Of a stretch of 35,437 nt of DNA, positions 15,131-34,107 are shown piece by piece. The notes beneath the pieces are model-generated. The model was not told the origin of the DNA, searched no databases, and was given only the letters and a program-made list of their open reading frames with translations. The DNA is taken from NCBI GenBank assembly GCA_021852055.1, contig JAJZOD010000009.1, forward strand, positions 1 through 35,437. Direction: 5' to 3'. A program made the translations under genes and the position numbers. The DNA is from Microcaldota archaeon. Lineage in GTDB: Archaea; Micrarchaeota; Micrarchaeia; Micrarchaeales; CABMGC01. Position 1 is the stretch's first letter, and each line of letters begins with the position of its first letter.

Positions 15131-15152
15131 TTTACAATACACACAACTCTCA

Positions 15153-15380: not shown

Positions 15381-15407
15381 TTAATTCACATCGTATCATT
15401 GCATTAT

Positions 15408-15447
15408 AATGTATAACAATGTATAATAATGTATTGTAATGTTACTG
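15408..15447. promoter_or_regulatory. Four tandem 10-bp operator-like repeats
   Basis: AATGTATAAC, AATGTATAAT, AATGTATTGT and AATGTTACTG follow each other with an exact 10-bp period. They cover the predicted transcription start and leader of the RHH gene (ATG at 15380). One repeat per helical turn is what cooperative RHH dimers usually bind. Confidence 0.65.
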
Positions 15448-15450
15448 CAT

Positions 15451-15464
15451 TAAATATATAAATA
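15451..15464 (-). promoter_or_regulatory. TATA-like box of the RHH gene
   Basis: TAAATATATAAATA on the plus strand reads TATTTATATATTTA on the minus strand. Its position predicts a start near 15431, inside the 10-bp repeat array, leaving a leader of about 50 nt. Confidence 0.5.
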
Positions 15465-15780
15465 CTTAACCTTACCTTTTCGGTAACCAAGTCTCTAACC
15501 TTTTTGACCTAACCCGATTCGCCAAATCGGCTTTTACCAGTGCAGATTGGGGTTTTTATCCTCATATTTGATTTTGCATGCAGAACGAACTCCACAAACG
15601 TAAAACTCAATTCAGAAAGTCAGGAATATGCATGGGTGTCAATCAAAGATGCGCCGCGTAAACTGTGCCATATACTAAATGCATAAAGGCGTATCTGGAA
15701 ATGAAGCGCAGATGCTACACCCAGGCGAACTGTAACTTCTTACACAACCAATAAAAGCATTTCTCTGCAATATTCAGCTT
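15465..15780. other. Intergenic region between RHH gene and thrS
   Basis: No convincing gene, tRNA or C/D box RNA is visible here. One small stem-loop is present: CCGATT (15514-15519) and AATCGG (15525-15530) with a 5-base loop, followed by CTTTT. It may be a terminator or part of a small RNA. The thrS promoter probably lies near 15748-15755 (CAATAAAA). Confidence 0.35.
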
Positions 15781-15790
15781 AGGTAGTTAG

Positions 15791-17491
15791 ATGAAGATAC
15801 TTCAAATGGATGTAGACAACATAACCTATGAGCCTATACGCCCAGAAGCCAGCGTATATGATGATGTTAAGAAGGAAAGAATATCTGTAGATGACACACT
15901 TGTTATATTTGTTTGCGTTGAGAAAGGCGATACGCCAGATATGGCAGACAAGGCAATGATAGACACTGAAGAGTATATGCAGAAGCTTGCAAGAAAGCGG
16001 CTTGTCATATACCCCTTTGCACATCTAAGCAACATGCTTGCAGACGTAGATGAAAGCAGGAAAATAATAGACCATATGCTCAAGCAGGTTCCAAAGGACA
16101 TAGACGTCAAAAAAGCACCATTCGGCTGGAACAAGAAGCTCATACTTGACATAAAAGCCCATCCGCTTGCTGAACAGTCGAGATCGTATTCATTAAACGG
16201 CGATGACCAAAAGGTATACAAAAAAGCAAAACCCATCAGCGTAAATACCTCCTTGGTGCGCAAAAGCAGCTGGGCCGGGCTTCCGGAGGAAGACCACAGG
16301 ACAATCGGAGAGAAGCTTGATCTTTACAGCTTTCAGGAGGTGTCTCCAGCGATGGTATACTGGCATCCTAACGGACATGTGCTGTACCGTGAACTCATCG
16401 CACTCATGCGCCAGCTCGAGCTTAAGTATGGCTATCTAGAGACAAGCACGCCTGTTGTTGTAAATTTTGCTCTTTGGCAGGTAAGTGGGCACCTTGAGCA
16501 CTACAAAGACAACATGTTCTCTTTTGATACAGATTCAGGATCTTTTGGATTAAAGCCCATGAACTGTCCCTCTACAATGCTTATTTATAAATCCAAGAAA
16601 TGGAGCTACCGGGAACTTCCATTTAGAACAGCAACATTTGACAAAATATACCGCAGGGAGCTCTCCGGCGTCGTGAGCGGACTTTTCCGAGTACAGGAGC
16701 TGACCCAGGACGATGGACATATATTTGCAACAGAGGACCAGGTAGGCAAGGAGATGGAAAGCCTGCTCCGCATGGTCAAAGAAACATACGATACGTTTGG
16801 CATGAAGTTTACCGCAAAACTCTCTACAATGCCGGATAGCCATCTTGGTGATGAGAACTTATGGAAGAAGGCAATTTCGGTACTTGAAGAAGCGCTTCAG
16901 AAAAGCGGTATGAAATATGAAGTCAAGGATAAAGAAGGCGCGTTCTACGGCCCTAAAATAGATTTTGATGTGATAGATTCCATCGGAAGAAGTTGGCAAT
17001 GCGCTACAATACAGCTGGATTATCAGCTTCCATCACGTTTTAATCTGGAGTATACAGCAGAGGACGGGAAGTCAAAGATGCCTATTGTGATACACCGCGC
17101 AATACTCGGCAGCATAGAGCGCTTCTCTGCCGTAATGGTAGAGCATTACCAAGGGAGGTTCCCTACCTGGCTGGCTCCGATACAGGTGCGCGTAGTTTCC
17201 ATATCTCAACAGGTAAATGATTATTCAGAGCGCGTGTTTCTGCAGATGAAGGAGCATGGCATACGCGCAGAGTTAGACATCGGCGACAAAACACTTGAAC
17301 ACAAGATACGCGACGCAGCGACCATGCGCATACCTTATACTATAATCATCGGAAAGAAGGAGCAGGAAAACTCTATGATAACTGTCAGAAGCCGCTCCGG
17401 CAAAAAACAGCAGCCCAGCGTAGCTATTGAGGAGTTCATTGAAAAAATAAAGAAAGAGATAAGCGAAAGATCTATTGTGCTTTCATATTGA
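15791..17491 (+). CDS. thrS: Threonyl-tRNA synthetase, archaeal type
   Basis: The 566-residue protein starts with the archaeal N-terminal editing domain, related to D-aminoacyl-tRNA deacylase (about 1-135, with YPFAHLS and KAPFGWNKK). The class II catalytic core follows. Zinc ligands Cys259 (LKPMNCPS), His310 (DDGHIF) and the His of VIHRAILGSIERF, together with the motif 3 arginine, are in place. The C-terminal anticodon-binding domain has RVVSISQQV and IIIGKKE. It charges tRNA-Thr and removes mischarged Ser. AGGTAG at 15781-15786 serves as a ribosome site. The XPF-like gene follows by 18 bp and may be cotranscribed. Confidence 0.97.
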   Translation: MKILQMDVDNITYEPIRPEASVYDDVKKERISVDDTLVIFVCVEKGDTPDMADKAMIDTEEYMQKLARKRLVIYPFAHLSNMLADVDESRKIIDHMLKQVPKDIDVKKAPFGWNKKLILDIKAHPLAEQSRSYSLNGDDQKVYKKAKPISVNTSLVRKSSWAGLPEEDHRTIGEKLDLYSFQEVSPAMVYWHPNGHVLYRELIALMRQLELKYGYLETSTPVVVNFALWQVSGHLEHYKDNMFSFDTDSGSFGLKPMNCPSTMLIYKSKKWSYRELPFRTATFDKIYRRELSGVVSGLFRVQELTQDDGHIFATEDQVGKEMESLLRMVKETYDTFGMKFTAKLSTMPDSHLGDENLWKKAISVLEEALQKSGMKYEVKDKEGAFYGPKIDFDVIDSIGRSWQCATIQLDYQLPSRFNLEYTAEDGKSKMPIVIHRAILGSIERFSAVMVEHYQGRFPTWLAPIQVRVVSISQQVNDYSERVFLQMKEHGIRAELDIGDKTLEHKIRDAATMRIPYTIIIGKKEQENSMITVRSRSGKKQQPSVAIEEFIEKIKKEISERSIVLSY

Positions 17492-17509
17492 GATATCGAC
17501 TGTGGCTAA

Positions 17510-18157
17510 ATGCAGAGACTAAGCATGCTTATAGACAACAGGGAAAGGAATGCGGAGATAATGGATTCTCTTGCAAGTTTCAATGTTGAAATGTCGTTTG
17601 CACAGCTCCCTGTGGGGGATTATATAATCTCAGACAGAATGTGTATAGAACGCAAAACAGTGCAGGATTTTGAGTCATCCATAATAGACGCAAGGCTTTT
17701 CGACCAGGCCACACGGCTAAGGGATGCATTCGATCTGCCAGTAATTATAATAGAGGGTCGGCTTGAGGACTGTTACGTAAGCAGGCACGCAATCCTGGGC
17801 ACCATCCTAGCTCTTTACACTGATTACAATATACAGGTTATAAACTCTGCTGATCCTTCAGAAACATCCTATATACTGTCAAAATTTGCTGAGCGGGAGC
17901 AGCTGATCGAAAGACGCCTGCCCCGAATTGCAGGCAGAAAGAAGGCCTATACCATGTATCAACATCAGCTGCTCATACTGGAGTCGGTGCCCGGCATAGG
18001 ACCCGAAACAGCAAAAAAGCTTATAAGCCACTTCAGTTCAGTAAAGAATGTGTGCAATGCTGATGTTGATGAGCTAATGAAGATAGATAAAATAGGCAGT
18101 AAAAAAGCTGAACTTATACATGCAGTGCTAAATGCCGATCAGAAGGCGATGCAATGA
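17510..18157 (+). CDS. xpf: XPF/ERCC4-type structure-specific endonuclease (short form)
   Basis: The 215-residue protein has the ERCC4 nuclease domain (1-135) with IDNRER near the N-terminus and the signature G-D ... E-R-K-x3-D: Asp37, Glu47-Arg48-Lys49 and Asp53. A tandem helix-hairpin-helix region follows, with SVPGIGPETAKKL and MKIDKIGSKKA at about 158-205. It lacks the helicase domain found in euryarchaeal Hef, and so resembles the short crenarchaeal form, which works with PCNA on branched DNA. Its stop overlaps the next ATG (ATGA), linking it to the DUF47 gene. Confidence 0.94.
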   Translation: MQRLSMLIDNRERNAEIMDSLASFNVEMSFAQLPVGDYIISDRMCIERKTVQDFESSIIDARLFDQATRLRDAFDLPVIIIEGRLEDCYVSRHAILGTILALYTDYNIQVINSADPSETSYILSKFAEREQLIERRLPRIAGRKKAYTMYQHQLLILESVPGIGPETAKKLISHFSSVKNVCNADVDELMKIDKIGSKKAELIHAVLNADQKAMQ

Positions 18158-18786
18158 GCTTTCTTAAAGGCTTTTTTGAAACTGGGGAAGAGAAGGCATT
18201 CAAGAATACAAAAGGCATAATCCGGGTCGCAAGAAAGGCGAATGCCGTTTTGGCAGACATAATAAATGGGGATTATGACATAACCAAAATAAACAAGCTG
18301 GAAAAAGAGGCTTCAAGCGAGTACTTCAAGGTGTCGCGCTCCATAACAACAGGAGCGATAGCCCCGAATCTCATAGACGACATGATAATGATAGCCGGAA
18401 AGGAGGAGAACATAGTCGATTCGGTATTCAAACTGGCAAGGCAGCTTGTACGCTACAGGATACGCGGCAGCCTCGCAAACAAATATGTAAGGGAGAAGCT
18501 GCTTGAGTTTAATGCACTTTCGAATACTGCAATACAATTGCTTGAAACTATGCATTCTTCAGAAAGCATAAGCGTAATGCGCCTTTCAAGATCAAGAATA
18601 AAAGTCATAGAAAATCAAGGGGACGCGGTAAGGGACAGTTTGCTTGACTTCGCCTACAGGACCAAATCAAACTTCAAGGAGTTTTATCATATAACTGATC
18701 TTGCATATATTTATGATGACGTTCTGGATGATTGCGAAGACTCTTCAGATATATTCCTGAGCATAATACTTTCAATGATTTCATAG
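18154..18786 (+). CDS. DUF47/PhoU-like regulator of the adjacent PiT permease
   Basis: The 210-residue all-helical protein has the DUF47 pattern: KINKLEKEASSEYFKVSRSI in the first bundle helices, IENQGDAVRDSLLDFAY and DLAYIYDDVLDDCEDSSD near the C-terminus. Its acidic clusters fit the metal sites of PhoU-like proteins. DUF47 genes usually stand next to PiT transporters, as here (13 bp between the genes), and are thought to control them from the cytoplasm. It starts within the XPF stop. Confidence 0.88.
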   Translation: MSFLKGFFETGEEKAFKNTKGIIRVARKANAVLADIINGDYDITKINKLEKEASSEYFKVSRSITTGAIAPNLIDDMIMIAGKEENIVDSVFKLARQLVRYRIRGSLANKYVREKLLEFNALSNTAIQLLETMHSSESISVMRLSRSRIKVIENQGDAVRDSLLDFAYRTKSNFKEFYHITDLAYIYDDVLDDCEDSSDIFLSIILSMIS

Positions 18787-18799
18787 CCAAAGTGATTAG

Positions 18800-19723
18800 T
18801 TGCTGTTTATAACGCTGCTCGATGTGCTCCTTGCCCTAATCCTTGTTGCGTTGGTTTCAGGAAACAATCTGTCTGTATCAACCGGCCCGATAATATCAGG
18901 AAGGGTTGTAAACAAGCGCACAGGAGTGCTTATCACAATATTGGGATATGTGTCGGGTTTTCTGCTGCAGGGCAGCATACTGCGCAAAGGCATAAGCAGT
19001 CTTCTGCCTGCCGGAAGCCTTTTAATACCTGTAATACTTGTGATATCAATAATAATGTTCATCATAGCGCATAAGAAGCGCGTGCCAGAATCGCTCTCTA
19101 TAATCTTTATATCAGCGCTTATAGGGGTCAGTTTGGCATACGGCTCAATTAACACGATATATGTAGCCGAAATCCTGTCTTTCTGGATTGTTGCTGGCAT
19201 AGTCTCACTGGTTCTCGCGTCAGTCGTACTGCACAGAGTCCAGAAACTCATGTATAGGGACAATGTTTGGACAGGAATACACTGGGTAAGGATCTTGCTC
19301 ATAATAATCTCGTTTCTTACCGCGTTTACCCTCGGCGCAAATACCTTAGGTACCATAGCTTCAGTAATACAGCCATCGCTGTACGTTTATGTTGCAATAA
19401 TTGTGTCTATCGTTTTAGGCAGCGTGTTGCTCAGTACTGGAGAGCTGCACAGGCTTGGTGACGAGATAATGCCTATGCGGTATGCGAATGCTCTTGTATC
19501 GCAGCTTGTTGCTGCGGCATCTGTGGAATTGGCTACCCTTTTAAGCGTGCCGCTTTCAAACACGCAGATGCTTACGAGCACCATATATGGAACAGGGCTT
19601 GGCTACAAGGAAAGGCTTTTATCAAAGAAGCCGGCAGTACAGATAGTATCGATATGGATAATTACTGCAGTATTCAGTGTAGCAGTGGCATACGCTGCCT
19701 CTGCAGTAATACTTGCTCTCTAG
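18800..19723 (+). CDS. PiT-family anion permease, divergent
   Basis: The 307-residue protein has about nine or ten membrane segments and the inverted repeat of PiT transporters: GNNLSVSTGPIISGR (about 21-35) and TLGANTLGTI (about 175-184). SVPLSNTQMLTSTIYGTGL corresponds to the conserved PVSTTH... stretch. The usual acidic residue of GANDxAN is missing in both repeats (Asn and Thr instead). Substrate may be phosphate or sulfate; PiT members of both kinds are known, and sulfate genes lie 5 kb away. The start is TTG, with an AGTGAT motif before it. Its stop overlaps the convergent Cgi121 stop in a shared CTAG. Confidence 0.85.
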   Translation: MLFITLLDVLLALILVALVSGNNLSVSTGPIISGRVVNKRTGVLITILGYVSGFLLQGSILRKGISSLLPAGSLLIPVILVISIIMFIIAHKKRVPESLSIIFISALIGVSLAYGSINTIYVAEILSFWIVAGIVSLVLASVVLHRVQKLMYRDNVWTGIHWVRILLIIISFLTAFTLGANTLGTIASVIQPSLYVYVAIIVSIVLGSVLLSTGELHRLGDEIMPMRYANALVSQLVAAASVELATLLSVPLSNTQMLTSTIYGTGLGYKERLLSKKPAVQIVSIWIITAVFSVAVAYAASAVILAL

Positions 19724-20681: not shown

Positions 20682-21056
20682 ATGCCTTCGCAGGTTTATG
20701 TTTGCGATGCAAGCGAGGCAAACGACCTAAAAAGACTAATGGAGTATGACCCATATCTTGACAAAAATCTCAATGAACAGCAGCTGGCAGACCTCAAAGA
20801 CAATGATGATGCAAATACCATATTTGCAAGGCAGGATTACAGCATAAAAGACGGCATATCAATTAATCTTGATTCCCAAAAATACTATTTATACATAAGT
20901 GCAAGCGAAGAGTTTCTAGCCCGCGCAGAAAAGAAACTTAAGGCAAACATTAAAAGCATAAAACGCGCAGACAAAGAAACCGAGGATAAGGTCATAAACC
21001 TGGTTGAAGGGGAAAGGCAGCAGAGCGAAGAAGGGATAGGCAGCATATTCGGCTAA
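20682..21056 (+). CDS. Small archaeal-looking protein downstream of eS8, function unknown
   Basis: The 124-residue acidic, soluble protein has no membrane segment. It contains VCDASEANDLKRL, a DYSIKDGISINL hairpin, then YYLYISASEEFLARAEKKLK, and ends GIGSIFG. The region after residue 60 looks like an alpha/beta domain followed by charged helices. I cannot name the family; SRP19 was considered because of the ribosomal context but its motifs are missing. It is cotranscribed with eS8 (4 bp apart), so a translation- or RNA-related role is plausible. Its TAA shares a CTAA with the stop of the convergent VirB4-like gene. Confidence 0.7.
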   Translation: MPSQVYVCDASEANDLKRLMEYDPYLDKNLNEQQLADLKDNDDANTIFARQDYSIKDGISINLDSQKYYLYISASEEFLARAEKKLKANIKSIKRADKETEDKVINLVEGERQQSEEGIGSIFG

Positions 21057-23269
21057 TCCGATCCAATATCCACTGTTATTACATTATCAGTCCCGCCATA
21101 AGCATCAAAAAAGCGCGTATCTTTCTTTTTTGCACCGTACATTGCTACTTTGTATCTCTTGTCTTTCAAAAGCCCTTCTATGCATACCCTTCCTTCACTA
21201 TCAGGAACACCTTTGTATATTTTCTCACCTGCATAAAAAACCTCTATTGTATTGTGCAGGCCAACTCCCTCCCTGCTTAAAATCCTTATGCCTGTTGCGG
21301 GTGCCGCATACGCTTTTATTTCATCTGGCTTATATGCGTCGGAGATGTTAACAAGCAAAGGTCTAATAAAAACTGAGCTTGAAGGTTCCTTGGAACCGTT
21401 TTTTATAGTCATATAACTCGCAATACATGTCTGCTGCCTTAACTTCTTAAGACTGTCTATAATGTCATCATTTACATCCTGGCCGAAGAGGAGGTCTGCT
21501 GCTGCGTATCTGGCCGATTCTGTACTTTGCCTAAAGTATAATTTTGTCTGGCACAGCCTTCTTATAGAAATCTCAATGTCATTCGCGCTGTGCGTAAGCA
21601 TGGCAAGGCACACACCCCTTTTTCTGAAATCCTGGATTCTTTGTTTTAGGTCTCTATTTGCAGCAGACTGTTCCTCATTATCGAAAATGAGCTGAGCCTC
21701 TTCTATGCATATAAACATGCGCAGGCTTTGGTCGCCGTGCACATCAAATGTGTCAGCAAATCCATACGCCTGGTTGAGTATCAGTGCATAGAAAAAGGGT
21801 TTCATGGTATTGCTTACAGGTGAAAGGTCGAATACAACACCCTTTTCGAGCAACTGCCTGAAATTCATACCCCCTTGATAAGCAAATTGCGGTTTGAAAA
21901 GCATCTGCCTCAGATTCTCGAGCCCTGCCATTATATTTTCTCCATGCTTCGTATATTTCACCCCCGCAGCAGTGCGTTTTGCATGCCTGTCTATGACAGC
22001 GTTTTCTATCTCTTCATAAACGTACAATGGATCCGGGTCTGTGCATAAAGAGTAAACTCTTCTAAATGCGGCAAGCAGACATTTTTCCATCGGTTCTCTA
22101 TACGGTCCAGCTCCAGATGCCGAAGCCATGAGCATGGCAAGATTCTCATAAAACTTCTCCTTGTTTACTCCATCCTCACACTTTAAAAAGTTTAATCTAA
22201 CATTATGGTCGTATATCCTCACAACTTCCATGCCTGCGGTTTTCCCGAAACCATTCCATTCTTCAGTAGGCGATATTACTATAGACATCGGTTTTTCCCC
22301 GATAAAGGACTGCCTGAGTATTCCCATAGCCGCAAAGCTTTTTCCGGTTCCTGGTAAGCCCGCAAGTATCAAACCTAGATTTAGATTCTGCTTTTGCATT
22401 CTTACCTGTTCTCCGGTATCGCACAAGCCTCCGTCTAAATACGAGCCAAGAATAATTCCACCTTCAGTGTCAGACAGAAAGGTGGGAAGCACATCCCTTC
22501 TAGATATCTTATTTGAAAAACCAAGAATTGTAGCAGAGTGCCTGCGTGAGAACGGCACGGCCGCAAAATCTTCAGATTCATTATAAACAGAGGCGATGTC
22601 AAAAGAACTTGAGCTAAAGCTTTCCAAAACTGACACCCTTGATTTTATATACTGCATTACTTTTTCAGAGGGATTTGATATTATGACCGAAATCCTATAC
22701 GATATGCAATTCTCGGTATACGCTTCATTTACTGTGTTTACCATGGATAAGAGCATTCTTCTTTCATCAGAGCCATAGTAAAGGTCCAACTGAGCTGAAC
22801 CGGTCCTGCTCCCTGCCGTAATCCCATCATCAAACTTTGTAAATCTCACTTTTCTGCTGCTGAGCTCATGCTCCACACTGTCTTTTACGCGCCTAAGATA
22901 ATCCTCTGTTGTGGGCATAAATGATATCATGATTAAAGAGTCCTCACCTCCCAGAATATCATACATGTCATAGAAAACCTGTTTATCCTGATGCATAATT
23001 TCAGTATTTTTACTGCTGTAATCTGTAAATGGTATTACTACTACCGGGCTCTCAAGCTTTTTGCTGTAATCAATGCAGCTTAAAATCGCGCCTTTAACTG
23101 CGCGTTCCACGCTCTCTTTTGCAGAATCTGCCTCTGTCATTATAAATGTATTTCTACCCTTAAGATCATGGCAAACAATAAATCTGTTTCCTGAAAATGC
23201 ATCAAGAAATTCGACAAAATCAATCTTTGAAGGCAGCTGTTCAATCTTGAATGCCAATGGCTGTTGCAT
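21053..23269 (-). CDS. VirB4-like ATPase of a DNA-exchange/type IV secretion-like system, with C-terminal beta domain
   Basis: The 738-residue protein has an N-terminal domain (1-295) with a VirB4-type helical/strand pattern, e.g. LIMISFMPTTEDYLRRVKDS. A RecA-fold motor domain follows with Walker A GLPGTGKS (304-311) and Walker B FICIEEAQLIF (519-529); QRIQDFRKRGVCLAMLTHS (543-561) resembles the VirB4/HerA sensor region. The last 80 residues (about 658-738) look like a carboxypeptidase-regulatory/Ig-like beta sandwich, unusual for a cytoplasmic ATPase. The ATG at 23269 lies 1 bp after the upstream stop; a longer frame to 23314 would overlap the previous gene. It is the last gene of the nine-gene operon. 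Confidence 0.85.
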   Translation of the reverse strand: MQQPLAFKIEQLPSKIDFVEFLDAFSGNRFIVCHDLKGRNTFIMTEADSAKESVERAVKGAILSCIDYSKKLESPVVVIPFTDYSSKNTEIMHQDKQVFYDMYDILGGEDSLIMISFMPTTEDYLRRVKDSVEHELSSRKVRFTKFDDGITAGSRTGSAQLDLYYGSDERRMLLSMVNTVNEAYTENCISYRISVIISNPSEKVMQYIKSRVSVLESFSSSSFDIASVYNESEDFAAVPFSRRHSATILGFSNKISRRDVLPTFLSDTEGGIILGSYLDGGLCDTGEQVRMQKQNLNLGLILAGLPGTGKSFAAMGILRQSFIGEKPMSIVISPTEEWNGFGKTAGMEVVRIYDHNVRLNFLKCEDGVNKEKFYENLAMLMASASGAGPYREPMEKCLLAAFRRVYSLCTDPDPLYVYEEIENAVIDRHAKRTAAGVKYTKHGENIMAGLENLRQMLFKPQFAYQGGMNFRQLLEKGVVFDLSPVSNTMKPFFYALILNQAYGFADTFDVHGDQSLRMFICIEEAQLIFDNEEQSAANRDLKQRIQDFRKRGVCLAMLTHSANDIEISIRRLCQTKLYFRQSTESARYAAADLLFGQDVNDDIIDSLKKLRQQTCIASYMTIKNGSKEPSSSVFIRPLLVNISDAYKPDEIKAYAAPATGIRILSREGVGLHNTIEVFYAGEKIYKGVPDSEGRVCIEGLLKDKRYKVAMYGAKKKDTRFFDAYGGTDNVITVDIGSD

Positions 23270-23270
23270 C

Positions 23271-23546
23271 TCACAAACCCCCGCCGGCAAGCGAAATAAG
23301 AGCCACCAAAACACTTGCTAGAAATATAAATACGAATAAATTAATTTCTACAAATCTTATCTTTGAATTTTTTACTATAAAAATAGAAACTATTGTGGTG
23401 ATAAGAAAGGAGGCAATTAATGCAGACTCGTAATTGCCAGAAATTATAAAACTTATGACAAAAGCGTTTAAAAACACAGCTGAGTATATTAATCCGAACT
23501 TAAGGCGCAACTGCTTCCTGCTTCCATAAAAATGCGTGAATTTCAT
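23271..23546 (-). CDS. Small membrane protein of the VirB4 operon (VirB3-like?)
   Basis: The 91-residue protein has a basic N-terminus (GSRKQLRLKFG) and three hydrophobic stretches: about 18-37, 43-58 and 67-87. It ends AGGGL. It lies directly before the large VirB4-like ATPase, where bacterial systems have VirB3, and its size fits; no sequence signature confirms that. ATG overlaps the upstream stop as TAATG. Confidence 0.65.
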   Translation of the reverse strand: MKFTHFYGSRKQLRLKFGLIYSAVFLNAFVISFIISGNYESALIASFLITTIVSIFIVKNSKIRFVEINLFVFIFLASVLVALISLAGGGL

Positions 23547-23734
23547 TACAACAGCTTCATTAAAATAAATGACGACACCAATAACGCCATAAATCCAATA
23601 GTCTTCGATATTATGCTCCGTCTATATGTCTGCACACCTGCCAATACTGCGTAAAATGTAAGTATAATTAGGCTTCCGCTTGATAGGAGTGCTGCTATGC
23701 TCTCAACAATCTCAAAGAAGTTTGTTATAATCAA
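23546..23734 (-). CDS. Tiny two-span membrane protein of the VirB4 operon
   Basis: The 62-residue protein has two hydrophobic helices (about 10-33 and 43-61) joined by a basic YRRSIISK loop. It resembles in size the small CedA-type partner or VirB2/VirB3 proteins, but nothing specific is recognisable. The start is TTG, preceded at 4-bp spacing by GGAGG (23739-23743), a strong Shine-Dalgarno that decides the start. TAATG links it to the next gene. Confidence 0.6.
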   Translation of the reverse strand: MIITNFFEIVESIAALLSSGSLIILTFYAVLAGVQTYRRSIISKTIGFMALLVSSFILMKLL

Positions 23735-23743
23735 ATAACCTCC

Positions 23744-24205
23744 CTACAAAACCTCTACTTTTTGCAGATAAAAGTAATAAAGCAACATTCCCCCTCTGCG
23801 TCCGAAGAAGATCAGTACTCCGTGTATGCTCTGCACCTGTTCGCCAAGCACCCTAAGAGTAAGACTTTTTGTTCTGCATTCCAAAAGTTGTTTTCTGTTA
23901 TATACGTCAAAGATACCAAAATTCTCAAAGCCCCGCTTCTTGAATTCTGAATATACGCTCGGCCTTATCCCAGAAGTTATCATAAACTTATCGGTTTCAT
24001 CTGATATGCGTTCCTCTTTTGAATACATTCTTTCTTCACCAAATGCGCAGTCTTTCAATTCGATATACTCGCCGTCATAATCCTGCTCTGGAGTAGATAT
24101 TACGATTTTAACATGCCCTAATTTTATGATTCTAATAAGATACATTAAACAAATCCCAGCTAATATCGGGGCCATATCAAGGAAATATGTTTCTGCTGTG
24201 CTCAT
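23744..24205 (-). CDS. Membrane-anchored protein of the VirB4 operon, function unknown
   Basis: The 153-residue protein has one N-terminal membrane helix (about 10-28) followed by an alpha/beta domain with an acidic EQDYDGEYIELKD segment. FKKRGFENFGIFDVYNRKQ and a basic strand FFGRRGGMLLYYFYL follow. No family is recognised. It could be a bitopic scaffold protein of the apparatus. Its ATG overlaps the previous stop as ATGA. Confidence 0.62.
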   Translation of the reverse strand: MSTAETYFLDMAPILAGICLMYLIRIIKLGHVKIVISTPEQDYDGEYIELKDCAFGEERMYSKEERISDETDKFMITSGIRPSVYSEFKKRGFENFGIFDVYNRKQLLECRTKSLTLRVLGEQVQSIHGVLIFFGRRGGMLLYYFYLQKVEVL

Positions 24206-24882
24206 ATACCAACCACGCTAAACTCTCCTTTTCCGTGCCATACTACTCTTTGCCCCATTGCACGCAGATAGTCTGTTGCATTGCGTATATCTTCTTCACT
24301 CAATCCCATTTCCTGCGTTAAGGTTTTAATGCTGCATATTGAGCGACATCTTGTCCGGAGGATTATTGCTGTGACATTTGCAATCTTTTGTCTATTTTCA
24401 TCGTTCTGCTTCCTTAAAACAGAAGTTTCCTTCTTAAGGTTTATTATCCTGGCAGACAAAATAGTCTCCGGACTTCCTCTTCTTTCTATACCTTTTACAT
24501 TCATGTAATAATCTAACTTTTCAGAAGTAAGTGCTTCTATGAGATAAGGAAATATGCTCTTTATGTCAAAGTCATATACTGCTTCTACAAAAGACGCAAA
24601 TGCCAGCAAATGTGCAACTCCCTCCTTGATAAAAATCAGCGGAGATGCAACTGAGTAAATTTCAATAGAGACGGCGCTATGAGAGAACTCTACAATATAA
24701 AACCGTGTCTGCATATCCTCTTCGTTTACCAGATATCTGCACGAGCTACCATAGCTCAAGGGTTGAAGTGCAGGATGCATTTTGATTATATTCCTGAGCT
24801 TCTGCAGATCCAGTAGCCTTCCCCCGAGAGGTATTCTTGAAAGGAGATAACCTGCTGTATTTATCTTCTTCTTATTTACCAT
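24202..24882 (-). CDS. Winged-helix-like protein of the VirB4 operon
   Basis: The 226-residue soluble protein has an unrecognised N-terminal domain (1-135) and a heptad-like charged helix ARIINLKKETSVLRKQNDEN (about 146-165). The C-terminal region, CSIKTLTQEMGLSEEDIRNA followed by a WHGKGEFSVV hairpin, looks like a winged helix-turn-helix. It might bind DNA as part of transport, or regulate the operon. It overlaps the HerA-like gene by 11 bp. Confidence 0.62.
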   Translation of the reverse strand: MVNKKKINTAGYLLSRIPLGGRLLDLQKLRNIIKMHPALQPLSYGSSCRYLVNEEDMQTRFYIVEFSHSAVSIEIYSVASPLIFIKEGVAHLLAFASFVEAVYDFDIKSIFPYLIEALTSEKLDYYMNVKGIERRGSPETILSARIINLKKETSVLRKQNDENRQKIANVTAIILRTRCRSICSIKTLTQEMGLSEEDIRNATDYLRAMGQRVVWHGKGEFSVVGI

Positions 24883-25993
24883 CGAAACTGACCTTGTTCA
24901 ATGCAATGGCGAAAGCATCAGCCAAATCATCGTTCTTAAAACCTGCAACTCTCATCTCATCAAGTATATCATGTTTATTTGCACCTAAGCGAATCAGCTG
25001 TTCTATAAGTTCATCTAGCCCTATTGCTTTCTCACTGTTTAGTTTTCTTAACAGTTCAGAAGAATCCGACTTTGTCAGTTTAGTTATTATCTCTTCTAAC
25101 CTCCTATACTCCAATTCTACCACTACCCCACCTTTTACCTTTATTATTGTTCCGACAGAAAGCCCTACAACTCCTGATATAAAAAATGCATCCCTCCTGC
25201 CAGATTTACCAAGTTGCATGACAAGGCATTCTCCTATTCCAAATGTCTGCACCTTATGTGTATACGCACTGCTTAATTGATAATCAGTTTCCAGCCTTCT
25301 AAGGCTTGCTTCTCTCTGTATTCTGAATATAAACAAAGTAGCTATGTTTGAAAGCATCCCTGCCTCAAGATCCTCAATAAGCTGTGATGTAATTATTATT
25401 CCTGTTCCATACTTCCTGCCTTCCCTAATTAAAGCTGCAAATGATTTATCCAAAGAGAGAAGTTTCCATGCTTCATCAAGAATCACATACAACATTCTGT
25501 TTTTTCCCGAAGTTCTTTTTCGCATAAATCCGGCAATTTCTTCGACGACATTAATGGCTGCGGAGATTTTTTCTTTATCGCGCATGCCTCCAAGCCCTAT
25601 ATATAATATCCCAGGTTCTTTTTTTACTAATACCTTTGAAATTCCTGAAAAGTCGTATCTCGTGCAGCCGGCGAACTCCGAGAAATCTGCATACTCTCCG
25701 GTAAAGTCTATCAATATTATCTGATTACCAAGTACTGCATATAATTTAATCATAAGATTCTTTGTAAGATACGTCTTTCCGGAGCCGCTCATTCCGGCTA
25801 CGAATATATGCGGGTTTATCAGATCTTTAGGATTTAAGAAAAACGGCATGCCTGTTTTTTCTGTGCATCCTATAAAAATGCCGCTCATGCTATGTTCCTG
25901 CGCTATCGCAATGCTATGCTCTGTCAAATCTGGGAAAACCATTAAATTGGCCAATGTGCTGGAACTTGTAAGCTTATGGAATGTCATTTTCAT
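24872..25993 (-). CDS. HerA/VirB4-family ATPase (CedB-like)
   Basis: The 373-residue motor has Walker A GMSGSGKT (67-74), LIDFTGEYADF in the HerA-like second strand, Walker B LYVILDEAW (168-176) and TSQ (202-204) as sensor. A C-terminal helical tail (about 325-366, LIEQLIRLGANKHDILDEM then a similar second motif) resembles a UBA-like bundle. It lacks the membrane N-terminal domain of VirB4, which seems to be coded by the gene just upstream. Archaeal CedB is a HerA-type ATPase that powers DNA import. ATGA overlap with the upstream gene. Confidence 0.87.
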   Translation of the reverse strand: MKMTFHKLTSSSTLANLMVFPDLTEHSIAIAQEHSMSGIFIGCTEKTGMPFFLNPKDLINPHIFVAGMSGSGKTYLTKNLMIKLYAVLGNQIILIDFTGEYADFSEFAGCTRYDFSGISKVLVKKEPGILYIGLGGMRDKEKISAAINVVEEIAGFMRKRTSGKNRMLYVILDEAWKLLSLDKSFAALIREGRKYGTGIIITSQLIEDLEAGMLSNIATLFIFRIQREASLRRLETDYQLSSAYTHKVQTFGIGECLVMQLGKSGRRDAFFISGVVGLSVGTIIKVKGGVVVELEYRRLEEIITKLTKSDSSELLRKLNSEKAIGLDELIEQLIRLGANKHDILDEMRVAGFKNDDLADAFAIALNKVSFDGK

Positions 25994-26715
25994 GCACCTC
26001 CAGCAAATGCGAGAAGTCTTTCGCCTTTTATTATTTCATAATTGAGTTTTGTAGTTGCAAAGAATGAGCTACAAATCCTTTCAATGGATTTTAATGATTG
26101 TGTTGCTGCTTCTGTTTCGTTCTTTTCAGAGGAAAAAGCCCTAATCTTAATTATTGTGTCAAAGGCCTTTCCGCTGTCTCTTACGCTGCTAATTTCAGAT
26201 TCTAAAATTTGAATCTCACGCCTTATCTGGTTTGCTTTGTCATATTTCTGCGCATTAATTTTTGCAAGGCGTATCTCCTGCATCCGCCTTCTTAAATCCA
26301 GAGAATCTATAAGCCTTTTTTTGTCTACTTGCATCGCAGTAAACGAGAACTCAAACTGTTCATGTATGCTTTCCAAAAGCCTGCAAAGCGTATCAGGTGA
26401 AATATCCACTGCACCATCAAATACTAGCACAGCGGCGCTTACCCCTACATATAACTCGCCTGATCTTTTTGTAAGTGCAGCAAGATTGCTGCTGAGCTTA
26501 TAACCGTTGATCAATTCTATTACTCTAGACCGTTTTATTAAAAGATTATTTATAATGTGCCCGGATTTGTAGTAAACTGCAGATGCAAAGATTAAGCATG
26601 CAGAGATGAGAGAAGCCAAATAATTCCCTGAGGCAATGCTGATTGCCAATATGCCAACTGCTACAGCATAGAATGCGTATGCATAAACCCTGCTGGCAAA
26701 TTCAAGTTCTTCCAT
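25990..26715 (-). CDS. Membrane protein resembling a detached VirB4 N-terminal domain
   Basis: The 241-residue protein has two N-terminal membrane helices (about 10-29 and 32-50). A domain with GYKLSSNLAALTKRSGELYVGVSAAVLVFDG follows, then a long charged helical region (IRREIQILESEISSV) and a FDTIIKIRAFS strand. Helix-rich regions with repeated E-x-E and a strand of FxxxI..R type occur in VirB4/TraC N-terminal domains, so a split VirB4 is inferred. Its ATG at 26715 follows the VirB6-like stop by 4 bp; a frame to 26760 would overlap that gene by 41 bp and is rejected. Confidence 0.68.
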   Translation of the reverse strand: MEELEFASRVYAYAFYAVAVGILAISIASGNYLASLISACLIFASAVYYKSGHIINNLLIKRSRVIELINGYKLSSNLAALTKRSGELYVGVSAAVLVFDGAVDISPDTLCRLLESIHEQFEFSFTAMQVDKKRLIDSLDLRRRMQEIRLAKINAQKYDKANQIRREIQILESEISSVRDSGKAFDTIIKIRAFSSEKNETEAATQSLKSIERICSSFFATTKLNYEIIKGERLLAFAGGA

Positions 26716-26719
26716 ATAC

Positions 26720-27784
26720 TCACAGTATGTTAAATCTCCCGAAGAATGCCTCTGATCCAAGCATTACGGAAAGTTCCCTGACTGATATGCCTGTTATTAT
26801 CAGACTAAAGATGGGCAGTATAAAAGAGTAAACTATGAGGTAAGCAAGACTGTTAAGAAGGCTATTAATTATCCCTGTTATCCCATTTGTAATAAATGAT
26901 ACGCCAGAATTTATACTCTGAAGAATCCCTCTTGAATTAGTAGAGTTGGATGTGGCATTATACTGCGCCTCTGCTCCGAATACAGAATCTTTAAGCGATG
27001 TTGCGCTTGCAGATATGCTGCTTATGCTTGTTTGATTTATATAAGTTGGATAGCTGTTGGTTATATTTACGTCTAAAACATACGACATCGGAAGCACTAC
27101 ATATAACCCTATAGAAAGTGCCATAATGAAACCGCCGAGCTTTCTTGTCGGATAAAATGTACGAAGTATAATGCCTGTCGGAAGCAGGACTGTCAGAACA
27201 CAGACCGCAACAAAATCTAGAATTGATGCTTGTACAACTGCAACTATGTCTACTGTGCCAAGAAGTTTGACTATATATTGAAGTTCATTTATTATCGGTG
27301 AAATAACATAAGAGAAAGAAAAAGTAACTATCCCTAAATCTATTTTTACCCCTGCTATCATTCCGAGAATCCCATTAAGGAGAAGAAGGTCTGTTATCGT
27401 TGTTGTGGCCGTAGAAAGCACAGAATAACGCTCAACACCTTTATATGTATACGGAACTGGGCTTGCGAGGTAGTTATACGCAAGGCATATTGCTGTGTTA
27501 TTTGCCATAAATCCACTGCATTTCATTACTGTTCCGTTAGCCAAAGTGGCCTGATTTATTGCCGTAGTTACAATTCCGTTGTTGGTGAATAGTACAAAAA
27601 TACTTCCTACAATTACTCCATTAATTATTGATTCGAGAAGCTCTTTTTTCCCGAATTCCTTCATCTTTTTTTCGTTTAATGCATATCCCAAACCCAATAC
27701 TACTCCTCCAATCGCAATCATAATGCTTATCAGATATACAGATATGCTAAGACCATACTGGCTTAATGGCAATTCATCACGCAT
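26720..27784 (-). CDS. VirB6/CedA-like polytopic membrane protein
   Basis: The 354-residue protein has about seven membrane helices (13-35, 52-70, 122-147, 152-170, 180-208, 216-238, 310-335). It has a basic NEKKMKEFGKKE loop and two long loops (70-120 and 238-308). N-x-S/T sequons occur only in those loops: Asn83, 95, 240, 250, 276 and 280. Both loops fall on the same predicted side, with a possible Cys89-Cys100 pair. This layout fits a translocation channel like VirB6/TrbL or CedA. It starts 4 bp after the pilin-like gene. Confidence 0.78.
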   Translation of the reverse strand: MRDELPLSQYGLSISVYLISIMIAIGGVVLGLGYALNEKKMKEFGKKELLESIINGVIVGSIFVLFTNNGIVTTAINQATLANGTVMKCSGFMANNTAICLAYNYLASPVPYTYKGVERYSVLSTATTTITDLLLLNGILGMIAGVKIDLGIVTFSFSYVISPIINELQYIVKLLGTVDIVAVVQASILDFVAVCVLTVLLPTGIILRTFYPTRKLGGFIMALSIGLYVVLPMSYVLDVNITNSYPTYINQTSISSISASATSLKDSVFGAEAQYNATSNSTNSRGILQSINSGVSFITNGITGIINSLLNSLAYLIVYSFILPIFSLIITGISVRELSVMLGSEAFFGRFNIL

Positions 27785-27788
27785 TTAG

Positions 27789-28175
27789 TTATAAAGAATT
27801 TGATGTTACATTTGCCAATAAGCCTGTAGATGCAACTGCAAGACCCGTAGACGCAACAGATAAAACTGCAACGATTATGGCACCTATTATTATATCTATC
27901 GAAGCACTGTGGAGGCTTGCCCTTTTGCTGCTTGGAAACAGCTGTCCTATGGAGTAGAAAATACCTGCAACGACGAATAACACAGCGCTAAGTATCGGTC
28001 CTACATGCATAAGTACTCCTTGTATGCTATTCAAAGTTGATATTATATCCATTGAAACCAGAGCAGGCGCTGCATATGCTTGCCTCAGAAAACCAACATA
28101 AAGAATAAACAATGCTATCGGGATCCTTACTATTATTCTCCTTATTCCATTCGGGACTAAATTTCCTATCCGCAT
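27789..28175 (-). CDS. VirB2/CedA1-like pilin precursor
   Basis: The 128-residue protein has a long, basic signal-like N-terminus (1-35) ending AYA before APAL, a plausible signal peptidase site. The mature part has two hydrophobic helices (about 57-78 and 92-120) joined by a basic PSSKRASLHSAS loop, the size and topology of VirB2/TrbC pilins. A single sequon, Asn122-Val-Thr, is at the C-terminus. It is first in the operon, as pilin genes often are. Identification rests on topology and position. Confidence 0.76.
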   Translation of the reverse strand: MRIGNLVPNGIRRIIVRIPIALFILYVGFLRQAYAAPALVSMDIISTLNSIQGVLMHVGPILSAVLFVVAGIFYSIGQLFPSSKRASLHSASIDIIIGAIIVAVLSVASTGLAVASTGLLANVTSNSL

Positions 28176-30553: not shown

Positions 30554-30632
30554 ATATGATGACACAGGTGATCGCGGAGCTTCGGCGATGAAGATAGGTA
30601 GGCGGTCTGATAAATAAATAAGCAGTGTATTG

Positions 30633-31511
30633 ATGGCGAATGGTAGGCTAAGCGCATTAGCTAGGCTTAATAAGCAGAGCATATCCGTGAAGGACATGGC
30701 TAGCCAGCTGTGGTGCGAGAAACAGATGGAGCTTGGGATAATTCATGGCGTATACAGCACCCCTGCTATGTCAAAAGGCTCCGTTGTGCATGCTATAATA
30801 CAGGAGAAGGTGTTTGTAAAACTCCCTGTTGAGCCTGTAACCTATATGGACAGGCTTTACAAGTGGGCGTATGAAAACTATGCAGGCATAAGCAAAATGC
30901 AAAGCGATGGCTACTGCCGCGAAATACACGTATATGGATCTATAAACGGGTTCAGGCTTTCTGGGCAGATAGACGAACTGCGCATAGTTGACGGCAAAGT
31001 AGTTGTTGTGGAAGACAAGACAATAAGCGGTTATGGGAACAGCAACGGGGTAGGGCAGCGTTTTGATTCAGATAAGATGCAGCTTAACATATACAAGAGC
31101 CTTCTTGATGACATAAAGAACTGCAGATACAACTACGACAACTTTGCGAAGTCCTACGGCATAGAAGGCAAGCCGCTATCTTCTGTGTTTCTTCAGGGCA
31201 TCAAGTCCCTTGGCATAAAGGACGAGCTTCTCAGATTGGAAGGCATCTACAAAAAAATGTTCACGGCAATGGAATCCATGCCGGAGATAAGCGACACGGT
31301 TGAGCTCAGGTATCTGAACAGATCTGACAGTTCTATAATTACTGATATGAAAATTCCTTATGATAAAAACAGCCTCAATGCATACCTGAAAGATGCGCTC
31401 GGCTACTGGTCCGGAGATCGTGATGCGAGGCCCGTGTCAGAAGCAAACAAGTCGAGATGCAACTTTTGCAAGTTCTTCGGCAAGGAGTGCACAGTGTGGT
31501 GGCCTAAATAA
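30633..31511 (+). CDS. EXO5/Cas4-like Fe-S exonuclease (PD-(D/E)XK)
   Basis: The 292-residue protein has SQLWCEKQMELG near the N-terminus (Cys28), then KGSVVHAIIQ, GQIDELRIVDGKVVVVEDK with catalytic Asp114, Glu127 and Lys129, and MQLNIYKSLLD (motif QxxxY-like). The C-terminal CNFCKFFGKEC gives Cys276, 279 and 286. One Cys early and three late is the [4Fe-4S] arrangement of EXO5/Dem1 and Cas4 nucleases. No cas genes are nearby, so a DNA repair exonuclease is the likelier role. It precedes Hel308 by 105 bp, which fits. ATG 30633 preferred over TTG 30630. Confidence 0.88.
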   Translation: MANGRLSALARLNKQSISVKDMASQLWCEKQMELGIIHGVYSTPAMSKGSVVHAIIQEKVFVKLPVEPVTYMDRLYKWAYENYAGISKMQSDGYCREIHVYGSINGFRLSGQIDELRIVDGKVVVVEDKTISGYGNSNGVGQRFDSDKMQLNIYKSLLDDIKNCRYNYDNFAKSYGIEGKPLSSVFLQGIKSLGIKDELLRLEGIYKKMFTAMESMPEISDTVELRYLNRSDSSIITDMKIPYDKNSLNAYLKDALGYWSGDRDARPVSEANKSRCNFCKFFGKECTVWWPK

Positions 31512-31616: not shown

Positions 31617-33725
31617 ATGTTTTTAAAAAATGCTGGGAGCTCTCTGCCAAAGGAGGTTGTTGAGTCAGCGGAGCTTCGCGGCATAACGTTGCTTACGCCT
31701 CCTCAGGAGCTTGCCCTTAAGAAGGGCCTTATGTCGGGCTCTAATATAGTTGTCGCTGCTCCAACAGCCAGCGGCAAGACGTTTATAGCTGAGATGGCAA
31801 TGCTGCGCACTGTTTTGTGGGACAAGAAAAAAGCGCTTTATATAGCACCCATGCGCGCACTTGTAAGCGAGAAATATTCCGACATGAAAAAAGATTATCC
31901 GTACCTGCACATTGCAATGTCCATCGGCGACCTTGATGCGCTTGATCACTGGCTGGACAATTACGATGTCATATTTGTTTCAACCGAAAAACTTGACAGC
32001 CTGATACGGCATGGGGTGCCATGGCTTGATTCGGTAGGATGCGTAGTTGTAGATGAACTGCATATGCTTGGAGAGTATGGCCGCGGTCCGACACTCGAGG
32101 TTCTCATAACAAAGCTGAGAAAGCTGATTCCTCGGTCGCAGATAATAAGCTTAAGCGCTACTATAGGCAATGCAAAGGAACTTGCTGACTGGTTAGATGC
32201 CGAACTTTTGAGCAGCGATTTCAGACCCGTGCCTTTGGAAAAAGGCGTTGTAGTAAATGACTTTATTAATTTCGGAGATCATGAAGAAGTACTTTCAGGA
32301 AGCGCGGAGATGCCGGAGGTACGCATAGCGCAGGATACATTGCACAAGAAGAAGCAGGTTCTGTTTTTTTACTCAACGAAGCGCAATGCAGAAGCAGGCG
32401 CAGAGAGGCTCGCAGAAGAGGTGAGCAAGTCGCTCACTCCAGAAGAGAAGGCAGCACTCGAAGAAGCCGGTGTTGAAGTGCTTTCAGCGCTGGGAAAGCC
32501 GACATCGCAGTGCGAAAAGCTTGCAAGATTCGTGAAATGCGGGGTCGCATTCCATCATGCGGGCCTTGCAAATCAGCAGAGGGGAGTTGTCGAGGATTAC
32601 TTTAAGCGTGGCATTATAAAAACCGTCTGTTCAACCACAACCTTGGGTTTCGGAGTGAACATGCCCGCGCATACTGTTGTTGTGCGCGATACCATCCGCT
32701 ACAGTGAAGGCGCAGGCTCAGTGCACCTCGGAGTTAATGAAGTCATGCAGCTTTTCGGGCGCGCCGGCAGGCCAAAGTACGATAAATACGGCAGAGCCCT
32801 GCTTATAAGCAAAAATGCCGAGGACGCAAAGAATCTGTTCCGCAGGTATATAACTGCTGATCTGGAGCCTATTTATTCTCAGTTGGGTGTCATGCCTGTG
32901 CTCAGGACCCATGTGCTTTCATTTATTGCAACAGATTTTCTCAGCATGGAGGATTCGATTACTGCGTTTCTCCTGCAGTCTTTCTATGGACACCAGCACG
33001 GAAGCGAAGGCGAACTTCACAGGATTATAAACAGCATACTTGAAGAGCTTGAGGAGTGGGGGTTCATACACCATACAAACGGCACGTATAAGGCAACACG
33101 TATAGGCAGCCGGGTGAGTGAGCTTTATATAGATCCTGTATCTGCAAAGTGGATAATTGACACGCTTCCAAAGGTGTCAGATGACATATCCTGCCTTTTT
33201 ATGATAACAAATACTATGGAGATGAAGCCTTACTCTAAAGCAACAGAGGAGGCAGAGGAGCGATTCATAAAGTACGGCAGCCTACTCGAGGGACAGGGTG
33301 CATATGACAGCTACCTCTACGATCCGATAAAGCCCTTTAGCACAGCTTTAATGCTGAACGAATGGATATCAGAGAAGGGTGAGCAGGAGCTTCTTGTGAA
33401 ATATCACGAAACTCCAGGATCTATATTCACCAAGACCAATAATGCCGACTGGATGCTTTATTCAAGCACTGAACTTGCACGTCTTGTCAGGGTCAATACG
33501 AACAAGCTACTGGAACTTCGTGTGCGCATGAGGTATGGCATCAAGAAAGAGCTTCTTGACCTTGTGCGCCTTGAGCAGGTCGGCCGCGTAAGGGCGCGCA
33601 CAATGTTCAACTCCGGAATAAAGACTGTAGAAGACCTCAGGAAGCAAGGTAGCAGCATAAAGCTGGAAAGGCTGTTTGGCAAAGAAGTATCTGCGAAAAT
33701 ACTGTCACAGCTCGGTTCTGTTTAG
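31617..33725 (+). CDS. hel308: Hel308/Ski2-type DNA helicase
   Basis: The 702-residue superfamily 2 helicase has a Q-motif (LTPPQELALKKGL), Walker A APTASGKT (48-55), APMRALVSEK, VVVDELHMLGEYGRGP (DELH box, typically DEIH/DEVH in Hel308), SLSATIGNA, STTTLGFGVNMPA and QLFGRAGRPKYD. A C-terminal helix-hairpin-helix lies at RLEQVGRVRARTMFNSGIK, matching domain V of Hel308. It acts on stalled replication forks and branched DNA. Its length is typical. The ATG at 31617 follows ACATAATTTA (about 31581-31590), giving a short leader. Confidence 0.95.
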   Translation: MFLKNAGSSLPKEVVESAELRGITLLTPPQELALKKGLMSGSNIVVAAPTASGKTFIAEMAMLRTVLWDKKKALYIAPMRALVSEKYSDMKKDYPYLHIAMSIGDLDALDHWLDNYDVIFVSTEKLDSLIRHGVPWLDSVGCVVVDELHMLGEYGRGPTLEVLITKLRKLIPRSQIISLSATIGNAKELADWLDAELLSSDFRPVPLEKGVVVNDFINFGDHEEVLSGSAEMPEVRIAQDTLHKKKQVLFFYSTKRNAEAGAERLAEEVSKSLTPEEKAALEEAGVEVLSALGKPTSQCEKLARFVKCGVAFHHAGLANQQRGVVEDYFKRGIIKTVCSTTTLGFGVNMPAHTVVVRDTIRYSEGAGSVHLGVNEVMQLFGRAGRPKYDKYGRALLISKNAEDAKNLFRRYITADLEPIYSQLGVMPVLRTHVLSFIATDFLSMEDSITAFLLQSFYGHQHGSEGELHRIINSILEELEEWGFIHHTNGTYKATRIGSRVSELYIDPVSAKWIIDTLPKVSDDISCLFMITNTMEMKPYSKATEEAEERFIKYGSLLEGQGAYDSYLYDPIKPFSTALMLNEWISEKGEQELLVKYHETPGSIFTKTNNADWMLYSSTELARLVRVNTNKLLELRVRMRYGIKKELLDLVRLEQVGRVRARTMFNSGIKTVEDLRKQGSSIKLERLFGKEVSAKILSQLGSV

Positions 33726-34002: not shown

Positions 34003-34107
34003 ATGGCAACTTCCAGTATAACTGACTTTTTTATTATTCTATGAGGTGTCCAGAAGAAGATTGATGAAGAAATAGAAGCTACGAATTGGAAAGAACCAGA
34101 GGAATAA
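34003..34107 (+). pseudogene. Minicistron interrupted by in-frame TGA before the methyltransferase
   Basis: An ATG at leaderless distance from a TATA box opens 13 codons, ends at TGA (34042-34044), and the same frame continues for 20 codons (charged, protein-like, with KKIDEEIEATNWKEPEE) to TAA at 34105-34107. The methyltransferase ATG follows by 2 bp. TGA is a normal stop elsewhere here, so this may be a decayed small gene or two short cistrons. It is too short to name. Confidence 0.35.

What the first reader, a model, noticed from the sequence alone, without database searches (positions are those of the whole stretch)
21053..28175. Nine-gene Ced/T4SS-like DNA-exchange operon in a small-genome archaeon
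Seen: one minus-strand operon with gaps or overlaps of a few bases. It encodes a two-helix pilin with a signal peptide, a polytopic seven-helix protein, a membrane protein plus a HerA-type ATPase, a winged-helix-like protein, three small membrane proteins and a second VirB4-like ATPase. Known: Sulfolobales Ced and Thermoproteales Ted systems import DNA with CedA1 (VirB2-like), CedA (VirB6-like) and CedB (HerA/VirB4-like). Inferred: this is a Ced/Ted relative or a new mini-T4SS; no relaxase or VirD4 is visible, so import or cell-cell exchange is likelier than conjugation. If the host is a DPANN symbiont, it could take up DNA or nucleotides from its host.
Basis: partly seen in the sequence, partly recalled or inferred. 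Interest (0 to 1): 0.9.

Follow-up and report, generated by a model that had tools for sequence, protein, structure and literature searches.

The report
Chromosomal conjugation-like machine in micrarchaea
A nine-gene operon in a tiny-genome, probably symbiotic archaeon encodes a stripped-down relative of the machines cells use to pass DNA to one another, with its main motor split into two genes; it has been inherited vertically through a whole order of these archaea and may let them exchange or acquire DNA.

Summary
Nine minus-strand genes (21053-28175) abut or overlap by a few bases, and the order A-B-C-D (pilin, polytopic protein, membrane protein, ATPase) is kept in 59 of 59 loci from two families. 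The organism is a micrarchaeon (DPANN; about 1.0 Mb draft). A is a VirB2/TrbC-type pilin (Pfam hits in 14/19 homologues). C plus D are one VirB4/CedB split into two genes: the C model matches R388 TrwK/VirB4 (top 12 Foldseek hits), and all 16 D homologues hit the DNA-import ATPase CedB family. I is a second HerA/VirB4-type ATPase, weakly CedD-like. B has VirB6/CedA-like position and topology, but neither profiles nor fold search confirmed homology. The operon is chromosomal, present in 39/51 near-complete genomes of the order, its tree follows the taxonomy, and no plasmid or viral copy or PF03432 relaxase was found: a domesticated machine, not a conjugative element. DNA exchange is the best-supported function but is inferred; effector delivery or host contact, as proposed for Patescibacteria T4SS, is not excluded. 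I found no description of it in the held papers. A second, phylum-wide cluster with six tandem paralogues of B lies elsewhere in the genome. Verdict: new variant of a known kind.

The parts
27789..28175 (-). A: VirB2/TrbC/CedA1-type pilin, 128 aa, signal-like helix then two TM helices
   Evidence: Pfam PF18895 T4SS_pilin and PF04956 TrbC/VirB2 each hit 14 of 19 homologues, best E 1e-5; window member alone only E 0.9. R388 TrwL (VirB2) ranks first among 36 T4SS/plasmid proteins in profile comparison, weak
26720..27784 (-). B: polytopic protein, about 7 hydrophobic segments, 354 aa; putative VirB6/CedA-like channel
   Evidence: Position directly after the pilin and before the VirB3/VirB4-like gene; topology; homologous to six tandem paralogues in the genome's second T4SS-like cluster. 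No family or fold match
25990..26715 (-). C: two-helix membrane hairpin (VirB3-like position) plus VirB4 N-terminal domain
   Evidence: AlphaFold2 pLDDT 79; top 12 Foldseek hits all from R388 TrwK/VirB4-containing structures, best E 8e-4, prob 1.00. Start moved from the mechanical TTG at 26760 to the ATG at 26715 on the alignment
24872..25993 (-). D: VirB4/CedB C-terminal ATPase domain without an N-terminal domain, 373 aa
   Evidence: NCBIfam CedB hit by 16/16 homologues, best E 2e-18; pNOB8 conjugative-plasmid ATPase at hhalign probability 97.8; invariant GxxGxGKT Walker A and DE Walker B
24202..24882 (-). E: 226-aa soluble protein with coiled coil and winged-helix-like C-terminus; function unknown
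   Evidence: Conserved position; homologous to a 249-aa protein of the second cluster, hhalign E 1e-7; winged helix is a reading of the sequence, not tested
23744..24205 (-). F: single-TM protein, 153 aa
   Evidence: Conserved position, fast-evolving
23546..23734 (-). G: two-TM protein, 62 aa
   Evidence: Same size and position in relatives despite about 10-20% identity
23271..23546 (-). H: small polytopic protein (3-4 TM), 91 aa, next to the second ATPase
   Evidence: Same size and position in relatives; no similarity to VirB3/PrgI/VirB8 found
21053..23269 (-). I: second HerA/VirB4-type ATPase, about 738 aa from M16, with a C-terminal Ig-like/regulatory-like domain
   Evidence: Profile match to D's ATPase domain, E 9e-11; NCBIfam CedD 6/14 (best 6e-10) and CD1110 VirB4 6/14; invariant GxPGxGK and conserved EEA motif

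Best explanation
This is a chromosomal, domesticated type IV secretion-like (Ced/Ted-like) translocation machine of micrarchaea. The pilin A would assemble a thin conjugation-type pilus (inferred). B would form the membrane platform or channel (inferred). C and D would together form VirB4/CedB: C anchors the motor in the membrane and supplies the N-terminal domain, D supplies the ATPase hexamer (identities shown by fold and family matches; assembly inferred). The second ATPase I, with small membrane proteins G and H beside it, would be the substrate-handling or DNA-translocating motor in place of VirD4 or CedD (inferred). The most likely substrate is DNA exchanged between micrarchaeal cells, or taken from neighbours, and used in RadA-dependent repair (inferred).
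For: Pilin family hits; VirB4 N-terminal fold of C; CedB-family ATPase in all 16 D homologues; second HerA/VirB4-type ATPase with CedD/VirB4 hits, as CedB and CedD pair in Sulfolobales (PMC11868833). VirB6-VirB3-VirB4 gene order as in pCF10, and pilin next to a seven-TM protein as in Ted (PMC9905601). Conserved as a unit in 59/59 loci and in 39/51 near-complete genomes of the order (counted); 10 of the 12 near-complete genomes lacking it also lack I. Vertical descent: both families and all 11 multi-member genera recovered as clades; convergent neighbour NreA, a DNA-repair gene, in 16 of the sampled genomes across both families. No B match on plasmids or viral contigs, no PF03432 relaxase, no ComEC, but RadA present.
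Against: B could not be tied to VirB6 or CedA by sequence or fold. I has no TM helix, unlike CedD, and only weak CedD similarity. No part proves a DNA substrate; the ATPase class also drives protein-secreting T4SS. Lost in about a quarter of near-complete genomes, so not essential throughout the order. Ups-type pili and DNA-damage induction, which accompany Ced, were not tested. Relaxase families other than PF03432 were not searched.
Confidence: 0.6

Rival explanations
1. A T4SS-like machine used for the symbiotic interaction itself: it delivers proteins or effectors to the Thermoplasmatales-type host, or forms a pilus for contact and uptake of host molecules, as proposed for Patescibacteria T4SS.
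For: Same machine class; Micrarchaeota are host-dependent (PMC5498576, PMC8975820); relaxase-free T4SS with VirB2-like pilins is essential for epibiotic growth of Ca. Southlakia epibionticum, as reported in PMC12102498; effector-secreting T4SS proposed for nanohaloarchaea (PMC10266531); E and F have no DNA-exchange counterpart known to me.
Against: The ATPases match DNA-import and conjugation families best, though these are the best-annotated families; absent from a quarter of near-complete genomes of equally small-genome relatives; no candidate effector gene was recognised beside the operon.
Confidence: 0.27
2. A degenerate or integrated conjugative element that moves itself between cells.
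For: All recognised parts are conjugation-type; archaeal conjugative plasmids also lack recognisable relaxases (PMC12857230).
Against: The gene tree recovers both families and every sampled multi-member genus; flanks are ordinary chromosomal genes and partly ancestral; no plasmid or viral copies of B; no PF03432 relaxase in the genome and no integrase noted beside the operon.
Confidence: 0.05
3. Not a T4SS but another membrane complex (for example S-layer or type IV filament assembly) with HerA-like ATPases.
For: B has no recognisable family and no PDB fold match; E to H are unassigned.
Against: C matches VirB4 structures and nothing else at comparable score; the pilin matches VirB2/TrbC families; archaellum and T4P systems use PilB/GspE-type ATPases and prepilin-peptidase sites (general knowledge), which the nine genes do not show.
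Confidence: 0.08

Closest known systems
Ced system of Sulfolobales (CedA, CedA1, CedA2, CedB, CedD)
   Same: Chromosomal, no relaxase; VirB2-type pilin, polytopic membrane protein, CedB-family ATPase and a second HerA/VirB4-type ATPase
   Different: CedB-like protein split into membrane/N-terminal (C) and ATPase (D) genes; second ATPase lacks a TM domain; all genes in one operon with extra genes E to H; B not demonstrably homologous to CedA
Ted system of Thermoproteales (TedA, TedB, TedC)
   Same: Pilin with signal-like N-terminus next to a seven-TM protein; VirB4-like ATPase nearby
   Different: VirB4 split; no ParA or Rad50 in the operon; second ATPase in the operon
MPF_FATA T4SS of monoderm bacteria (pCF10 PrgH-PrgI-PrgJ)
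   Same: Order VirB6-like, VirB3-like membrane hairpin, VirB4
   Different: VirB3-like hairpin and VirB4 N-terminal domain in one protein, VirB4 ATPase separate; no VirB1, VirB8, VirD4 or relaxase recognised in the operon
Relaxase-free T4SS of Patescibacteria (PMC12102498)
   Same: Small-genome, host-dependent cells; VirB2-like pilins near VirB4; relaxase usually absent
   Different: VirB4 of bacterial monoderm descent, not described as split; different gene set
Giant-protein VirB4/TraG-like T4SS proposed in nanohaloarchaea (PMC10266531)
   Same: DPANN T4SS-like ATPases
   Different: No giant Ig-repeat protein here; here a compact operon with pilin and putative channel

Membership tests
Ced system | CedA1/VirB2-type two-helix pilin | tested here: met
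   TrbC/VirB2 and T4SS_pilin Pfam hits in 14/19 homologues; CedA1 itself not compared
Ced system | CedA: polytopic VirB6-like protein | tested here: inconclusive
Ced system | CedB: TM region, VirB4-like N-terminal domain and HerA/VirB4 ATPase in one protein | tested here: not met
   All elements present but in two genes, C and D
Ced system | CedD: second ATPase with TM region | tested here: inconclusive
   Second ATPase present with weak CedD hits in 6/14; no TM helix
Ced system | DNA-damage-induced, species-specific DNA import | not testable with these tools
   Needs expression data and genetics
Ted system | Locus with unsplit VirB4/TedB and commonly HerA, ParA, Rad50 | tested here: not met
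   VirB4 split; no ParA or Rad50 in the operon
T4SS superfamily | VirB4-type ATPase with VirB4 N-terminal domain | tested here: met
   C fold plus D ATPase, in two polypeptides; PF03135 itself not hit
T4SS superfamily | VirB6 channel protein | tested here: inconclusive
   B fits by position and topology only
Conjugative T4SS | Relaxase | tested here: inconclusive
   PF03432 absent from the genome; other relaxase families not searched; genome about 90% complete; archaeal conjugative plasmids also lack recognised relaxases
Conjugative T4SS | VirD4-type coupling protein | tested here: inconclusive
   I could fill the role but matches VirB4/CedD/HerA families more than TrwB/TraG; no genome-wide VirD4 search

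The most novel reading that the evidence does not exclude
A DPANN-specific class of T4SS, with VirB4 split into membrane/N-terminal and ATPase proteins and a dedicated second ATPase, through which host-dependent micrarchaea draw DNA (as repair template or as a nucleotide source) from their archaeal hosts; the phylum-wide cluster with six VirB6-like paralogues would be its sister machine.
Probability: 0.2. Interest if true: 0.88.

Novelty: new variant of a known kind. Interest (0 to 1): 0.66.

Why it matters
Ced and Ted, as described in the papers held here, are crenarchaeal. A vertically inherited equivalent in an order of DPANN archaea extends domesticated conjugation machinery to host-dependent archaea and offers a concrete candidate for the pili-like structures and gene exchange reported between ARMAN-type cells and Thermoplasmatales. 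It parallels the T4SS reported as essential for epibiotic growth in Patescibacteria. The split VirB4 gives another natural cut through that protein, besides the CedB/CedD arrangement, and makes the role of its N-terminal membrane part testable in isolation. Existing micrarchaeal co-cultures could be tested directly, if their strains carry the operon.

Tried and rejected
Pfam scan of the window proteins alone: pilin only E 0.9; B, G and H nothing. PDB sequence searches with B and I alone: none. PDB profile searches: pilin none; B only ABC-transporter and coiled-coil matches judged spurious; I weak to HerA; D clear to HerA/VirB4. NCBIfam and Pfam of C: nothing; only the fold search resolved it. 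B fold search: TTYH and ABC proteins at E 0.03 or worse and TM about 0.2, rejected. Six paralogues of B from the second cluster in two genomes: no VirB6 Pfam hit. Profile comparison with pCF10, pNOB8 and R388 proteins: B, E, G and H nothing; C to PrgI only at P 0.03, not used. NreA, Hjc, Hel308, Exo5 and ERCC4 near some operons: suggestive of DNA repair, but single-copy neighbours with shared ancestry and no random-region control, so not used as proof of function.

Full report
What is there. The nine minus-strand ORFs are real and form one tight operon. Two mechanically called starts are probably wrong: C starts at M16 (26715) and I at M16 (23269), judged from alignments and the profile match; all junctions then lie within 11 bases. 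The window is the start of C14 of a 1,018,812-base, 14-contig draft about 90% complete. The named matches are micrarchaeal MAGs, one labelled Marsarchaeota (L055 has the same length and match coordinates as the G004 contig, same genus). NCBI now calls the phylum Microcaldota.

Conservation. B homologues occur in 138 of 148 relatives, but this mixes two paralogous groups. Counting only strong matches (my count from the table, E below 1e-14), the operon type is present in 39 of 51 genomes at least 90% complete in the order: 14/19 in the window's family f1 and 25/32 in f2. Of the 12 near-complete genomes without it, 10 have no I match, one (G116) only a weak fragment, and one (G014) has a clear but partial I. 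In 59/59 loci taken from 57 genomes, A, B, C and D follow in that order on one strand; most continue with E and end with I. F, G and H diverge so quickly that BLAST misses them, but ORFs of similar size stand at the same positions. In genus g3, I lies elsewhere. A tree of concatenated A-D separates f1 from f2 with support 1.0 and recovers all 11 multi-member genera. The commonest neighbour, in 16 genomes of both families, is the DNA-repair gene nreA, usually convergent with I. These results indicate vertical inheritance from an ancestral chromosomal locus with later rearrangements and losses. Outside the order there are a few related B proteins (G173, G176, G182 in f4; G235 in f15), and G235 also has an I homologue.

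What the proteins are. A: 14 of 19 homologues hit Pfam T4SS_pilin and TrbC/VirB2, best E about 1e-5; A begins with a signal-like helix followed by two TM helices. D: all 16 homologues hit NCBIfam CedB, best 2e-18, far below the equivalog cut-off, so it is a relative, not a CedB equivalog; it lacks the N-terminal half of CedB (its residues 32-99 match CedB 247-314). C: no sequence family, but the AlphaFold2 model (pLDDT 79) gives TrwK/VirB4-containing R388 structures as its 12 best PDB matches (E 8e-4 to 2e-2, probability 0.98-1.00), with unrelated proteins far lower in probability. C has an N-terminal membrane hairpin and lies between B and D with a 4-base overlap to D. I therefore read C+D as a split VirB4/CedB, C perhaps including a VirB3-like part; VirB3-VirB4 fusions are known (PMC12102498). 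I: its ATPase domain matches D's profile (E 9e-11); NCBIfam gives CedD (6/14) and the CD1110 VirB4 family (6/14) among the leading hits. It has no TM helix. B: seven-TM-like, in the right place, but unassigned by Pfam, NCBIfam, PDB profile, Foldseek and profile comparison with VirB6 of R388 and PrgH of pCF10; its model is of moderate confidence (pLDDT 72). VirB6 and CedA are known to diverge beyond simple searches (PMC9905601), so this is inconclusive rather than negative.

How it may work. Shown: a VirB2-type pilin, a VirB4-type motor in two pieces and a second HerA/VirB4-type motor are encoded together and inherited together. Inferred: A polymerises into a thin pilus on a membrane platform of B, C and the small proteins; the C-D motor powers pilus assembly or transport; I, next to G and H, handles the substrate in place of VirD4 or CedD. 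The Sulfolobales system uses two HerA-type ATPases whose N-terminal domains together resemble a VirB4 N-terminal domain (PMC11868833); here the division is different, but again there are two motors. DNA is favoured as substrate because the motors belong to DNA-import and conjugation families, the genome has RadA but no detectable ComEC, and repair genes recur in the neighbourhood in some genomes. The last point is weak. Dihydroorotate dehydrogenase was not found, which is compatible with a need for imported pyrimidines but proves nothing. The main rival is a role in host contact or effector delivery, given the reported requirement for T4SS in Patescibacteria epibionts.

Element or organ? No match to B on any of 72,556 plasmids and only weak ATPase-domain matches to D, none in viral contigs, no PF03432 relaxase. 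With the tree and synteny, a mobile element is unlikely.

The sister cluster. The own genome (C9; L035) and G008 (L053) carry another cluster: an E homologue (tested for L035), a short D-like tail, a 501-aa VirB4-type ATPase, two C homologues and six tandem B paralogues; the B paralogues and operon B are homologous by profile (E 7e-25). Multiple B-type matches occur in most families of the phylum. In G008 a pilin-like ORF lies nearby. Housekeeping genes flank it. This suggests that the window's operon is an order-level specialised relative of a phylum-wide machine.

Literature. Papers found describe two type IV pilus systems, genomic islands with possible conjugative elements and pili-like contacts in Micrarchaeota (PMC5498576), and T4SS-like giant proteins in nanohaloarchaea, but not this operon; the library lacks most subscription papers and preprints, so absence there is not proof of novelty.

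Noticed in passing
G000:C9 = L035 about 6379-18912 (-); L053 2965-15607 (-): Second T4SS-like cluster with a 501-aa VirB4-type ATPase, two C paralogues, an E homologue and six tandem VirB6-like B paralogues; multiple B-type paralogues per genome occur in most families of the phylum.
   Followed up: partly
L035 3827-6208 and L053 446-2806 (-): Large secreted or membrane-anchored protein (about 790 aa, no Pfam hit for the L035 copy) at the end of the second cluster in both genomes; possible surface component.
   Followed up: no
G000:C4:4818-5393 and G000:C12:7326-7664 (L002, L004): Two further HerA/VirB4-like ATPases (565 and 534 aa) elsewhere in the genome, with DUF87 and TraG-type P-loop Pfam hits; one may be canonical HerA, the other unassigned.
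   Followed up: partly
window 17510-18157, 30630-31511, 31617-33725: ERCC4/XPF-type nuclease, Exo5 nuclease and Hel308-like helicase within about 6 kb of the operon; in some relatives Hjc or NreA adjoins the operon instead.
   Followed up: partly
window 21053-21350 (C-terminus of I): The second ATPase seems to end in an Ig-like or carboxypeptidase-regulatory-like domain (weak hits in one or two homologues), unusual for a cytoplasmic motor.
   Followed up: no
L040 and L041 (genome G001): One draft genome holds two copies of the operon; duplication or strain contamination (5% contamination estimate).
   Followed up: no
window 34086-35437: Start of a probable DNA methyltransferase gene (type III restriction-modification-like by eye) running off the window.
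   Followed up: no
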